NCBI RefSeq assembly: GCF_001518815.1
Contig: NZ_CP013987.1
Span: forward strand, 2,998,501 to 3,062,500
Length of the DNA: 64,000 nt
Source: Pseudomonas oryzihabitans
GTDB lineage: Bacteria; Pseudomonadota; Gammaproteobacteria; Pseudomonadales; Pseudomonadaceae
Direction: 5' to 3'
Part shown: positions 26,533 to 34,065 of the stretch, one piece after another
How the letters are laid out: the number at the start of each line of letters is the position of its first letter
How positions within the stretch are numbered: position 1 is the stretch's first letter
Translations under genes and position numbers: made by a program
Notes under the pieces: model-generated
Databases searched by the model: none
The model's input: only the letters and a program-made list of their open reading frames with translations
What the model was told of the DNA's origin: nothing

Positions 26533-27447
26533 CTAGAAGCTGCGACTGACCAGGCGATCGCGACCTTCCGCCTTGGCCTGATAGAGCAGGTTGTCGGCGG
26601 CCTTGAGCATCTCTTCCGGGGTCTGCTCGGGCGTCGGATTGCAGCACGCCAGACCCATGCTCATGGTCAGCCAGAGGCGGTCCTCCGCCAGCGGGTGAGC
26701 GATGCGCAATTCGGCGATGCCCTGGCGGCAGCGCTCCAGCACCGCTTCGGCCGCGGTACGCGAGGCGCCCGGCAGCAACAGCACGAACTCCTCCCCACCA
26801 TAACGCGCCAGGCAGTCCCGCTCACGGATGCGCTGTTCCAGCACCTGGGCCACCCGCGCCAGCGCCTGATCGCCCGCACCATGGCCGTGGGTATCGTTGT
26901 ACTGCTTGAAGTAGTCGATATCGAGCATGGCGATAGCCAGGGAACCACGGCGGGAGACCGCCAGCTGCCATTCGATCGCCAGTTGCTCATCGAAGCGGCG
27001 GCGGTTGCCCACCGCCGTCAGCGGATCCATGTGCGCCAGCTCTTCCAGCAGCCGGCGCTGCCGGGCCAGTTGCAGGTGCAGCCGTACCCGCGCCAGCACG
27101 GCGAGCGGATTGAAGGGCTTCTGGATGAAATCGCTGGCGCCCAGCTCGAAACACTCGACCTCGCGGTGCAGGTCGTTGGCGGCGGTGATGAAGATCACCG
27201 GGATGGCACTGGTCTCGGCGCGGCGCTTGAACAGCTGGATCAGCTGCAGGCCGTCGATGCCTGGCATCACCACGTCCAGCAGGATCAGATCGGGATGCTC
27301 GCGGGCCGCTTTGGTCAGCGCCTGGACGCCACTCTTGGCCAGCATGATGCGCGCCTCGTTGCGCAGCAGATCACCGAGGACACGCAGGTTGCTCTTCTGA
27401 TCGTCGACGATGAGGATCAACGGCAATTCGGGACGACGCCCCTCCAT
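26533..27447 (-). CDS. REC-GGEEF response regulator (diguanylate cyclase)
   Basis: This 304-residue protein has an N-terminal receiver (acceptor Asp58 in LILLDVVMP, conserved Lys110) and a C-terminal diguanylate cyclase domain with GGEEF at 217-221 and an intact RERD I-site at 208-211. It should make c-di-GMP under phosphorylation control. It lies 6 bp downstream of the 2203-residue hybrid kinase gene on the same strand, so it is the likely terminal acceptor of that kinase's phosphorelay (inference from operon structure). It ends 17 bp from the stop of convergent wspR, placing two diguanylate cyclases tail to tail. Confidence 0.93.
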   Translation of the reverse strand: MEGRRPELPLILIVDDQKSNLRVLGDLLRNEARIMLAKSGVQALTKAAREHPDLILLDVVMPGIDGLQLIQLFKRRAETSAIPVIFITAANDLHREVECFELGASDFIQKPFNPLAVLARVRLHLQLARQRRLLEELAHMDPLTAVGNRRRFDEQLAIEWQLAVSRRGSLAIAMLDIDYFKQYNDTHGHGAGDQALARVAQVLEQRIRERDCLARYGGEEFVLLLPGASRTAAEAVLERCRQGIAELRIAHPLAEDRLWLTMSMGLACCNPTPEQTPEEMLKAADNLLYQAKAEGRDRLVSRSF

Positions 27448-27453
27448 CGGCCG

Positions 27454-30400: not shown

Positions 30401-33400
30401 CAGAAGCGGCCATAGAGCTCTTCGGCCAGCGCCGCGCCCTGCCGGAAACCGTGCAGGCGAGCGGACTCCAGCGCCTGCTCATAGAGATCCATGGCAGCCT
30501 CGACGCGTCCGTCGCGCCGGGCCAGCTCGGCGTCCACCAGGTCACGCTTGTGCGCGAAGTTCTCCGGGCAGTGCTCCGCCCACCCGGCCAGACGCTCGCG
30601 GGCGCTCTGGACCTTTGCCAGGTCCTCGTCCACCAGTTCGCCTTCCGCGAGCAGGATCAGCGCCTGATAGAAGGCATGTTCGGCGATGCTGAACCAGCCG
30701 AAGCTCGCCGCCAGCGATGCCTCCATGGCTTCGGCATGGTGCCGAGCCTGGGGTAGCCGGCGGAACAGCAGCGCCGCCTGCATCTTGTTGAAGTCGTAGT
30801 AGTTCAGGCAGAGGACATGACCACTGTCCTGCATCTGCTGCACCAGTGCCGCCTCGTCCTGTCCCTCTTCGTCCCAGCGCTCCTGCCCCGGCGTGAGGCC
30901 CTGCAGCAGGCGCAGTGACTGACGCAGAATGGTGAAGACCTCGAGGGTGTTGGGATCGCCGATCCCCAGCAGGATCCGCTCGATCTCCTCGGTTTCGGCC
31001 AGGATGTCGTCCAGCGGTGCGCCGGCATGCTGCAGGTGCTTGAGGATGTGGAAGGCACTATAGGCGGTAAAGATGATCTCGCCGGTGCGTTGCCCGGCTG
31101 CCAGGGCTTCGCGCAGCAGGGTGACGTTGTCCGCGATGGGGCTCGACCAGGGACTGTTGGTCACCGCGAACATGGTGTAGACCTTGCACTTGAGCGGCAG
31201 ATTGCCGGTGCGGTCCACCAGGTCGACGGCCAGTCGGCCGATCTGATAACCCAGTTCGTAGCGGCCATGAAAGGCCGACAGCACAGAGCCGTAGTTGGCG
31301 TAGCCGAAAGGCGACAGATCGCCGTTGCCGTACCGGATCGACAGTTTGACGATGCGCATGATCGCCAGCAGGCTCATGGCCAGGTCGACGTTGGTGGCCG
31401 GTCCCCAGAGCAGGCCCAGCAAGCGGATCAGCAACTGGGCGCGGGGATCTTCCATGCGCGGTAGGTCGAGCAGTGCCGCCGGGGTGTGCTCGGCCAGCCA
31501 GGCCTCGACCTCGGCACTGTCGCTGCCGATGGCCTGGTTGATCGCCTCTGGCGCCTCCGGCCAGGGTTCGTCCAGCGCCTGGATACCGGCCACCGCGACG
31601 GCCACGGCCTCGGTGAAGCGACCCAGGCCGCTGTACAGGTCGATCTGCAGGGCCCGGACCCCGGCCTCTTCGAAGGTGGTAAGGGCTCGCGGCAGCAAGA
31701 GTTCGCAGATGCGCAACGCTTCGCTGGCATCGCCACAGAGATGGGCCACTTCGGCCCATTCCCGATGCACCTGGAACAGCAGCGCGTGGCGGCTGCCCCA
31801 GGCCGCCTCGTCGATCAGCTCGACGGCCGTGCGCAGGAAGTCCAGCGCAGCGGGATAGGCATTGGCCTGACGCGCCTTGCGTGCGGCCTCCAGGTTGAGT
31901 TCCAGCAGTTGCAGGCGCTCGGCGGGCGATTCGATCAATGCCAGCGCCAGATTGAGATGACTCACGGCGTCCAGCCGCTGGCCGCTGCCCTCGGCGAGGT
32001 ACAGCTGACCGGCGCGCAGATGGACCCGCTCGCGTTCGGCGGGCGCCAGCAGCGAGTAGGCGGCGTGCCGCACCTGATCGTGGGGGAAGCTGTAGCGGGT
32101 GGGCGTCGCCTCGCCCGTCTGGCCGCCGTCGGTTTCGGTGAGCAGGCCTTCCTGCACCAGCGATTGGCAGAGCCGGCGGATATCCGCCGGTGATTCGGCC
32201 ATCAGCGCGGCGAGACGGTCGCTGGAGAAATGCGTGCCCAGGCAGGCCGCCCATTGCAGCAGCTGCGAGGTCGCCGCTGGCAGTTCCTTGAGCTTGCCGA
32301 CCATGAAGTCGACGACATTGTCATAGACGTCCAGTGCCTGAAGACGCTGCAGCTCCCAGTGCCACTGCCCGCGTTCACCATCGAATTCCAGCAGGCCATC
32401 CTGCTGCAGGCTACGCAGCAGCTGTTCGATGAAGAAGGGATTGCCGAGGGTCTTGTCCAGGCACAGGCCAGCCAGGGCCGCCTGGTCCGCAGCCGGGGCC
32501 GGCAGCAGTTCGGCGATCAGCCGCTCGATCTCCACCCGCGACAGCGGGCCCAGCGAGAGGGTGCGGATCAACCCCGCGCTCAGCAGTCTTTCCAGGCTAC
32601 TACCGGCCAACTGCTCTTCGCGATGGGTGGCCACCAGCAGCAGCGAGCCGTGGTCGCCCCGCGCCAGCAGCCGTTCGATCAGTCGCAACGAGGCGCTGTC
32701 GGCCCATTGCAGGTCATCCAACCAAAGCAACAGCGGGCGGGTGTCCGTGGCAAAGGCCCGCAACAAGGTGATCACGGTTTCGTCGAAGCGCTGTTCGGCC
32801 TGCTGCGGCGGTAGCTCGGCCACCGGAGGCTGGGGCCCGAGCCAGGTGGCCAGCTCAGGAGAGACCTCGGTCAGCACACCCGCGTTGCCAGCCAGGGCGC
32901 CTACCAGGCGTTCGGCGAACGCCTCGCCCAGGGTCTGGCCGATCTCGACCAGCTCACGCACGGCCTGGCGCAGGGCGCCATAGGGCACGCCGCTGCCGAG
33001 CGTCTCGAACTTGCCATGGGCCAGGATCACCCGTTCGCCCTGGCGGCGAACGAAGGCCTGTACCAGTGCCGACTTGCCCACCCCGGAGCTGCCGCTGACG
33101 AAGACCGCCTCGATCCGGCCCAGGGTCGCCCGGGCCAGGGCCTCTTCCAGCATCCGCAAGGGCACGCCGCGCCCCTGCAGGGTGCGCACCGGCATCAGCC
33201 GGGCCGGTGGATCCTGTTCACCCAGGGTAAAGTCTGACGAATCGCCCCCTTGATAGGCTGCCTGGCAACGCGTCAGATCACTCAGGATGCCGAAACAGCC
33301 CTGGTAACGTTCCTCGGCGGCCTTGGCCATGAGCTTGTCCACCAGCGCCGCCAGCATGGGCGGTACCGTCGGCACGCGCTCGACCAGCGACGGCGGCCGC

Positions 33401-34065
33401 ATCGCCAGGTGCGCGTGCATCAATTCCAGGGGATCCTGGGCGCGAAAGGGCGGCTCACCGGCGAGCATCTCGTAGAAGGTCACGCCCAAGGCGTAAAAAT
33501 CGCTGCGATAGTCCTGGTGACGCCCGGTTCGCCCGCTCTGCTCGGGAGCCAGATAGGTGAGGGAGCCTTCCAGACGGACATCGTTGCCATTGACGGCGCC
33601 AAAGGCCGTGGCGATTCCCAGGTCGGTGAGGCGTAGCGTGCCGGTGGCGCAGTTGCAGACGATGTTGCGCGGATTGAGATCGTTGTGGGCGATACGCAGC
33701 CGGTGCAGTCGCGCCAGGGCGCGAACGATGGACAGTGCCCAGTCGAAGAAGTCCTCCAGGGCCAGAGGGCCCGCCGCGAGCAGTTCGCCCAGATCGGTAC
33801 CGCCGATGTCTTCGAGTACCAGGACCAGGCTGCCCTCGTGGTCCAGCAGGTCCAGGGCCGCGCTCACAGCGCCACTGGCGCTGGCCCGGCGGGTCAACTC
33901 GAACTCCTGGCGTAGCGCAGCCTGGGCCTGGGGCGTGGGGTAGTCGGTGGCCAGCAGCTTGAGGATCACCGGCTGACCATCGTCCAGCCGGGTTCCTCGA
34001 TAGATCAGCGCATGGCGGCTTTCACTCACCCGCGTCGTGCAGCTGTAGCCTGGAATATTCAACAA
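27454..34065 (-). CDS. Giant Ser/Thr kinase - AAA ATPase - GAF - hybrid histidine kinase
   Basis: The protein is 2203 residues. Residues 1-270 form a eukaryotic-like kinase (VILK Lys36, HNDLNPRN Asp129, DLG Asp148, APE 173-175). Residues about 295-640 are an AAA/ORC-type ATPase with GSSGVGKS (325-332) and LLLWLDD (445-451). Residues about 660-1260 are TPR-like helices and about 1285-1455 a GAF domain. The histidine kinase spans about 1485-1715 (H-box His1495, GTGLGLA). Two receivers follow (Asp1777 and Asp1912), then an Hpt-like domain with His2064. No membrane segment is evident. The start is TTG 34065 (a second TTG follows), 4-5 bp after GAAGG; no ATG exists ahead of the kinase domain. It probably feeds the downstream REC-GGEEF gene. 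Confidence 0.93.

What the first reader, a model, noticed from the sequence alone, without database searches (positions are those of the whole stretch)
26533..34065. Giant Ser/Thr-kinase/AAA/GAF/hybrid-histidine-kinase operon wired to a diguanylate cyclase
A 2203-residue protein joins a eukaryotic-like kinase, an AAA-type ATPase, TPR-like helices, GAF, a histidine kinase, two receivers and an Hpt-like domain. Its gene is 6 bp from a REC-GGEEF gene with intact catalytic and I-site motifs. The layout suggests one phosphorelay (His1495 to receiver to His2064 to Asp58 of the cyclase) gated by two further nucleotide-driven domains. Kinases of this general class are known by name (STK/ATPase/sensor kinase), but I know of none with an established link to c-di-GMP.
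Basis: partly seen in the sequence, partly recalled or inferred. Interest (0 to 1): 0.75.

Follow-up and report, generated by a model that had tools for sequence, protein, structure and literature searches.

The report
Giant kinase operon feeding c-di-GMP synthesis
A Pseudomonas carries a very large sensor protein, built from a eukaryote-like kinase front end and a bacterial phosphate-relay back end, encoded next to an enzyme that makes the biofilm messenger c-di-GMP; the parts are known, but their combination gives a way to ask what such front ends sense.

Summary
Window 27454-34065 (-) encodes a 2203-residue protein: Pkinase, AAA_16, probable TPR-like region, GAF, HisKA/HATPase, two receivers, Hpt. 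Six bases downstream is an intact REC-GGEEF diguanylate cyclase (26533-27447). Relay residues are present (H1495, D1777, D1912, H2064; cyclase D58).

The operon is in 11 of 13 same-genus genomes searched and in a Chromatiaceae MAG. All 12 proteins seen with this front end plus HK-REC-REC-Hpt have the cyclase next door. The kinase's closest relative in its own genome is a CHASE/PAS-HK-REC-REC-Hpt protein whose neighbour is the cyclase's closest relative: apparently a pair inherited together with the sensor half exchanged. The same relay layout was shown experimentally in CdgK-CdgS of Anabaena, where REC2, not REC1, carries the phosphate.

Beyond the finding, the same front end is fused directly to GGDEF in 14 of 179 surveyed proteins (3 also with EAL), scattered over a tree; 150 of 179 show no GGDEF link. 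A kinase-TPR-GGDEF protein was noted in print in 2005.

Best reading: a CdgK/CdgS-type phosphorelay with an HstK-type input; a new variant of a known kind. Signal, kinase substrate and phosphotransfer are untested.

The parts
27454..34065 (-). Gene for the 2203-aa STK-AAA-TPR-GAF-HisKA-HATPase-REC1-REC2-Hpt protein (TTG start)
33304..34008 (-). Eukaryotic-like protein kinase domain (residues 20-254); K36, D129, N134, D148 kept, glycine-rich loop not recognisable
   Evidence: Pfam; residues
32632..33180 (-). AAA_16 ATPase domain (residues 296-478); Walker A 325-GSSGVGKS-332, Walker B D450-D451
   Evidence: Pfam
30166..32610 (-). Probable helical/TPR-like region (about residues 486-1300)
   Evidence: inference; Pfam TPR_CHK1 in the corresponding region of ortholog L121; no structure model obtained
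29710..30156 (-). GAF domain (residues 1304-1452)
   Evidence: Pfam
28936..29613 (-). Histidine kinase core: HisKA 1485-1550 with H1495, HATPase_c 1597-1710
   Evidence: Pfam
28531..28896 (-). REC1 (about residues 1724-1845), D1777; probably accessory
28141..28473 (-). REC2 (residues 1865-1975), D1912; probable relay receiver
27727..27975 (-). Hpt domain (residues 2031-2113), H2064, altered motif HSLQA; predicted Hpt fold
   Evidence: Pfam
26533..27447 (-). Gene for the 304-aa REC-GGEEF diguanylate cyclase; D58, RERD I-site, GGEEF 217-221

Best explanation
The two genes form one signalling operon. The C-terminal half of the large protein is a CdgK-type phosphorelay: the histidine kinase phosphorylates itself at H1495, the phosphate passes to D1912 of REC2, then to H2064 of the Hpt, then to D58 of the partner REC-GGEEF protein, which dimerises and makes c-di-GMP, with product inhibition at the RxxD site. 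The N-terminal half (kinase-like domain, AAA ATPase, probable helical repeats, GAF) is an HstK-type intracellular sensing module that sets the histidine kinase's activity. Shown: domains, residues, gene order, conservation of the pair. Inferred from relatives: the relay route and activation by phosphorylation. Inferred only: what the front end senses and whether the kinase domain phosphorylates anything.
For: Domains and residues; predicted Hpt fold with PDB Hpt proteins as the six best matches. Kinase present in 11 of 13 same-genus genomes, with the cyclase next in all 11: window, L053-L060, L237, L121 at 50% identity. Chromatiaceae MAG L062 has the same architecture and partner. All 12 proteins seen with this front end plus REC-REC-Hpt have it (11, L237; in L059 the kinase domain is in a separate frame). 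In the own genome the best relative of the kinase (41%, 361.8 bits) and of the cyclase (45%, 246.8 bits against 147.4 for the next) are adjacent genes (L022). The route was shown in CdgK-CdgS with the same HisKA-HATPase-REC1-REC2-Hpt + REC-GGDEF layout (PMC9927289, passages). Relay residues invariant in the 11 aligned orthologs.
Against: The Hpt motif is altered (Lys to Gln or Arg, Gly to Ala or Ser), and the Hpt is, with the C-terminal tail, the least conserved part (69-84% in close orthologs, 32% in L121); BarA's solved Hpt also lacks the Lys in the profile alignment (weak match). HK-REC-REC-Hpt kinases in a Nostoc genome have REC-SpoIIE genes downstream (55 and about 600 bp), not cyclases, so the module alone does not fix the partner. 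150 of 179 proteins with this front end have no GGDEF fused or within 400 bp on the same strand. No promoter, terminator, expression or phosphotransfer evidence.
Confidence: 0.78

Rival explanations
1. The Hpt's main target is another response regulator (for example a GacA-like one), and the adjacent cyclase is a minor or historical neighbour.
For: The C-terminal half scores best to BarA among NCBIfam models (450.3 bits, far below the cut-off of 890); two Nostoc kinases with the same relay layout neighbour REC-SpoIIE proteins.
Against: The cyclase stays adjacent in 12 of 12 proteins of this architecture, in Pseudomonas and a Chromatiaceae MAG, and the paralogous kinase also sits beside the paralogous cyclase.
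Confidence: 0.12
2. The cyclase is an extra output of the neighbouring Wsp system: WspE phosphorylates it as well as WspR, and the giant kinase is separate.
For: The cyclase gene lies tail to tail with a wspR-like gene (17 bp between stops in the window) there and in nine relatives (L053-L060, L237).
Against: It is co-directional with the kinase and convergent with wsp; in L121 and L062 the kinase-cyclase pair persists with no wspR-like gene seen within 2.5 kb; it is closer to the L022 cyclase (45%) than to WspR (35%).
Confidence: 0.05
3. The kinase domain directly phosphorylates the cyclase or a c-di-GMP effector, and the His-Asp relay is secondary.
For: K36, D129, N134 and D148 are the same in 10 of 10 aligned rows that carry the domain, window included; the front end is fused to GGDEF with no histidine kinase domain detected in 14 proteins.
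Against: 9 of 27 GGDEF-linked rows lack the catalytic Asp or Asn, including L062 with the same architecture; no recognisable glycine-rich loop.
Confidence: 0.05

Closest known systems
CdgK-CdgS of Anabaena sp. PCC 7120 (PMC9927289, passages read)
   Same: Adjacent cotranscribed pair; HisKA-HATPase-REC1-REC2-Hpt feeding a REC-GGDEF cyclase; relay H-D(REC2)-H-D
   Different: Input is CHASE, five PAS and GAF, membrane anchored; here kinase-AAA-GAF. The own-genome paralog pair L022 (CHASE-PAS) is closer to CdgK in layout. CdgK and CdgS sequences were not compared directly
HstK-type dual Ser/Thr-His kinases (Anabaena Alr2258 HstK; passages of PMC2176072 and PMC1262709) and fungal CHK1 kinases (PMC9069115, abstract in listing only; 'group X' recalled)
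   Same: N-terminal protein kinase domain, GAF and histidine kinase in one chain; AAA and middle region shared by sequence in the relatives surveyed; Pfam TPR_CHK1 match in L121 and L131
   Different: Most kinase-AAA-GAF-HK proteins surveyed have no REC-REC-Hpt tail and no cyclase partner
Kinase-6TPR-GGDEF protein of Clostridium thermocellum (1826 aa, PMC1262709, passages)
   Same: Protein kinase with helical repeats linked to a GGDEF domain
   Different: Direct fusion, no phosphorelay; domain listing, no experiment; its sequence was not compared here
WspR and PleD
   Same: REC-GGDEF/GGEEF output; PleD is the best PDB sequence match, a WspR-type entry (3bre) follows
   Different: Fed by WspE or by DivJ/PleC (recalled), not by a kinase-AAA-GAF protein; PleD has an extra receiver

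Membership tests
CdgK/CdgS-type phosphorelay to a cyclase | HisKA-HATPase-REC-REC-Hpt in one protein | tested here: met
   Pfam
CdgK/CdgS-type phosphorelay to a cyclase | Adjacent co-directional REC-GGDEF gene with intact Asp and GG[DE]EF | tested here: met
CdgK/CdgS-type phosphorelay to a cyclase | CHASE/PAS input | tested here: not met
   Pkinase, AAA_16, GAF instead. It works like CdgK but I do not file it as a CdgK
CdgK/CdgS-type phosphorelay to a cyclase | Phosphotransfer to the cyclase and activation | not testable with these tools
   needs biochemistry
HstK-type dual kinase | N-terminal protein kinase plus GAF plus histidine kinase in one chain | tested here: met
   Pfam
HstK-type dual kinase | Catalytic Lys/Asp/Asn/Asp of the protein kinase | tested here: met
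   K36, D129, N134, D148; glycine-rich loop not recognisable
HstK-type dual kinase | Ser/Thr kinase activity | not testable with these tools
   needs assay
Active diguanylate cyclase (PleD/WspR class) | GG[DE]EF, RxxD, receiver Asp | tested here: met
   GGEEF 217-221, RERD, D58; Pfam GGDEF 171.5 bits
BarA equivalog | NCBIfam NF008318 cut-off | tested here: not met
   450.3 bits against 890
Hpt domain | Pfam Hpt cut-off and helical-bundle fold with the His in a helix | tested here: met
   28.5 bits against 24.6; model and Foldseek matches (best E 0.0097)
Hpt domain | HxLKG motif (recalled) | tested here: not met
   HSLQA; His invariant, Lys and Gly replaced

The most novel reading that the evidence does not exclude
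The kinase-AAA-TPR-GAF unit shared with cyanobacterial HstK-type and fungal CHK1-type kinases is a portable cytosolic sensor that evolution has repeatedly wired to c-di-GMP: by direct fusion to GGDEF or GGDEF-EAL, by a neighbouring REC-GGDEF, and here by a full four-step phosphorelay. In these systems the protein-kinase domain may act as an allosteric nucleotide or ligand switch rather than as a protein-phosphorylating enzyme.
Probability: 0.4. Interest if true: 0.7.

Novelty: new variant of a known kind. Interest (0 to 1): 0.52.

Why it matters
HstK-type dual kinases are common in some groups (47 of 146 genomes of the cyanobacterial phylum sampled matched the front end), and the 2005 survey calls the signals they perceive and the processes they influence 'intriguing' (PMC1262709). 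A member bonded to a dedicated cyclase gives a measurable readout (c-di-GMP) for such a front end, and the GGDEF fusions give a simpler two-part version in which the same question (does the kinase domain signal by catalysis or by conformation?) can be tested without the relay.

Tried and rejected

Promoter and terminator scans gave 0 and 0 (shuffles: 0.8 and 3.3), so co-transcription rests on the 6-bp gap and conservation.

The wider idea that the front end is mainly a c-di-GMP module was rejected: 150 of 179 surveyed proteins have no GGDEF fused or within 400 bp on the same strand. Ten of these 150 have under 900 bp of downstream sequence, and four more (L110, L113, L176, L179) have a GGDEF gene further off or on the other strand and were not counted. 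L214 (a 159-aa GGDEF fragment) is among the 15 'paired' but doubtful. 28 of 91 front-end histidine kinases without their own receiver have instead a same-strand REC gene without GGDEF within 400 bp. The survey is not random: 30 of 33 class rows, 30 of the family rows, 40 phylum rows and 40 cyanobacterial rows were fetched, 20 of the last chosen for long reading frames, from lists that were partly cut. 'Other' rows, with no HATPase by my home-made profiles, may include histidine kinases that these miss.

Tree: ten of the 179 were left out (five near-copies L054, L056, L058, L059, L060; five short or cut rows L071, L120, L182, L187 and one of L204). The fused label needs 11 changes on 169 rows, at least 7 forced by well-supported branches (22 of 500 shuffles as low); these are changes, not gains, and several fused rows are long branches. 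L062's place is unsafe (long-branch warning), so I do not claim that its pair shares one origin with the Pseudomonas pair.

A reading in which REC-REC-Hpt itself implies a cyclase was rejected by the Nostoc REC-SpoIIE neighbours.

The motif loss is taken from the printed motif; the Lys and DFG-type columns there may be misaligned in distant rows.
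Full report
WHAT IS THERE. The window lies in a 4.83-Mb single-contig genome whose closest named relatives in the scan are Pseudomonas oryzihabitans-group strains. The gene at 27454-34065 on the minus strand encodes 2203 residues; its TAG stop is 6 bp from the ATG of a 304-residue REC-GGEEF gene. Pfam finds, over curated cut-offs, Pkinase, AAA_16, GAF, HisKA, HATPase_c, two receivers and Hpt in the first protein and REC plus GGDEF in the second. An AlphaFold2 model of residues 1985-2203 is all helical (pLDDT 81, pTM 0.56) with H2064 inside helix 72-89 of the model; its six best PDB matches are Hpt proteins, among them BarA and P. 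aeruginosa HptB (best E 0.0097, none at 0.001).

CONSERVATION. Among the 13 same-genus genomes listed in the family search (own included), 11 hold a match of 50% identity or more to the first 455 residues; G091 and G106 do not. In ten of these (not L121) a wspR-like REC-GGDEF gene lies tail to tail. In L059 the kinase domain lies in a separate frame from the rest. Between the window and L055 the cyclase differs at 69 synonymous and 7 non-synonymous codons. H1495, D1777, D1912, H2064, K331, D450 and D451 are the same in all 11 aligned orthologs, and K36, D129, N134 and D148 in the 10 that carry the kinase domain. REC2 (88-98%) is better kept than REC1 (77-88%) in the nine close orthologs; the Hpt is 69-84%.

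THE PAIR AS A UNIT. The nearest relative of the kinase in its own genome is a 1668-residue CHASE-PAS-HisKA-HATPase-REC-REC-Hpt protein (361.8 bits, 41% over residues 1471-2156; Pfam). The nearest relative of the cyclase is the gene next to it (246.8 bits, 45%; next best 147.4 bits; L022). Kinase and cyclase have therefore probably been inherited or copied together while the input half was exchanged. A Chromatiaceae MAG (L062) has the whole architecture with a REC-GGDEF partner, and its Hpt shares the glutamine in place of the usual lysine. All 11 REC-REC-Hpt proteins in the table of 179, and L237 as a twelfth, have the cyclase next door. Against a general rule: in a Nostoc genome two HK-REC-REC-Hpt kinases have REC-SpoIIE genes downstream.

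MECHANISM. In Anabaena CdgK-CdgS, the layout HisKA-HATPase-REC1-REC2-Hpt with an adjacent, cotranscribed REC-GGDEF gene was dissected: phosphate runs H1149, D1604 (REC2), H1757, D60 of CdgS; REC1 is dispensable; phosphorylation raises cyclase activity (PMC9927289, passages read). I assign the same route here by likeness of layout and by the stronger conservation of REC2. The Hpt departs from HxLKG; in a profile search of PDB sequences BarA's Hpt, which also lacks the lysine, aligns at E 0.063 and a designed protein (BRIC1) at 0.0015, both weak. The best PDB sequence matches of the cyclase are PleD entries, then the WspR-type 3bre; activation by receiver-driven dimerisation is recalled knowledge.

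THE FRONT END. I searched with residues 1-455, which carry no output domain, so hits are blind to output: 267 of 298 family genomes match at E 1e-3, many by the kinase domain alone; 17 of 369 class genomes at 1e-30; 38 of 398 phylum genomes at 1e-40; 47 of 146 genomes of the phylum of the cyanobacterial locus L086 at 1e-40. I fetched 30 class and 30 family stretches, 40 from the phylum list and 40 from the cyanobacterial list; with the 38 scan loci and the window, duplicates removed, 179 kinase-AAA reading frames were classed. Fourteen are fused to GGDEF with a GG[DE]EF motif, each confirmed by Pfam, ten of them on the C-terminal part only; three also bear EAL (L101, L118, L229). Fifteen have a GGDEF gene within 400 bp on the same strand: the nine P. 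oryzihabitans-group loci, L121, L062, L086, L111, L116 and the doubtful fragment L214. The other 150 have neither. On a 169-row tree of the kinase-AAA part, the fused label needs 11 changes, at least 7 forced by well-supported branches. The four kinase residues are complete in 18 of 27 GGDEF-linked rows and 82 of 145 others by alignment column: the domain is often a probable pseudokinase, but not in this clade.

WHAT IS KNOWN. Dual Ser/Thr-His kinases with GAF were described in cyanobacteria and listed in Pseudomonas putida among others (PMC1262709, section 19 and passages; PMC2176072, passages). PMC1262709 also lists a Clostridium thermocellum kinase-6TPR-GGDEF protein of 1826 residues. I found no experimental link between a kinase-AAA-GAF-histidine kinase protein and c-di-GMP in the listings of searches (open-licence full texts only; two returned no paper; beyond listings I read only the passages and the section named here). 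The Wsp survey (PMC8552884, passages) describes WspH hybrid kinases; the passages shown do not mention this neighbour.

VERDICT. A real, conserved, probably functional operon; the mechanism is that of a known pair with an unusual input. The more general point, that this front end is repeatedly wired to c-di-GMP, is the part that raises interest. Checking this report changed wording, added the late Hpt model and left all odds as they were.

Noticed in passing
window 18094-26515 (+): A wsp-type cluster: chemoreceptor, CheW-like, CheR-like, CheW-like, WspE-like hybrid CheA, WspF-like CheB and WspR-like REC-GGDEF; two REC-GGDEF genes thus end 17 bp apart tail to tail. The last three genes have Pfam support; the first four names come from reading the sequence.
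   Followed up: partly
L022 4301-9307 and 3363-4304 (-) (own genome, G000:C1 about 4204362-4210306): Paralogous CHASE-PAS-HK-REC-REC-Hpt kinase with an adjacent REC-GGDEF cyclase overlapping it by 4 bp; a likely CdgK/CdgS-like system in the same strain.
   Followed up: yes
L059 (P. oryzihabitans KNF2016): The kinase domain (289-aa frame) and the rest (1911-aa frame) of the ortholog are in separate frames; real split or sequencing error not resolved.
   Followed up: no
L101, L118, L229: Kinase-AAA-GAF proteins ending in GGDEF-EAL, i.e. the front end on a possibly bifunctional c-di-GMP enzyme.
   Followed up: partly
L102, L128, L131: GGDEF-fused members whose kinase motif lacks the catalytic Asp (HKS or HKA), probable pseudokinases; L128 and L131 are in the same bacterial family as the window.
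   Followed up: partly
window 34238-36343 (+) and 36269-37204 (-): Divergent gene for a large FAD-dependent amine-oxidase-like protein (701 aa; far below the HpnE cut-off), and a 311-aa protein with no Pfam or NCBIfam match at E 0.001 overlapping its 3' end on the other strand.
   Followed up: no
L234, L235 (Nostoc genome G1175): HK-REC-REC-Hpt kinases with REC-SpoIIE phosphatase genes downstream: the same relay layout used for another output.
   Followed up: partly
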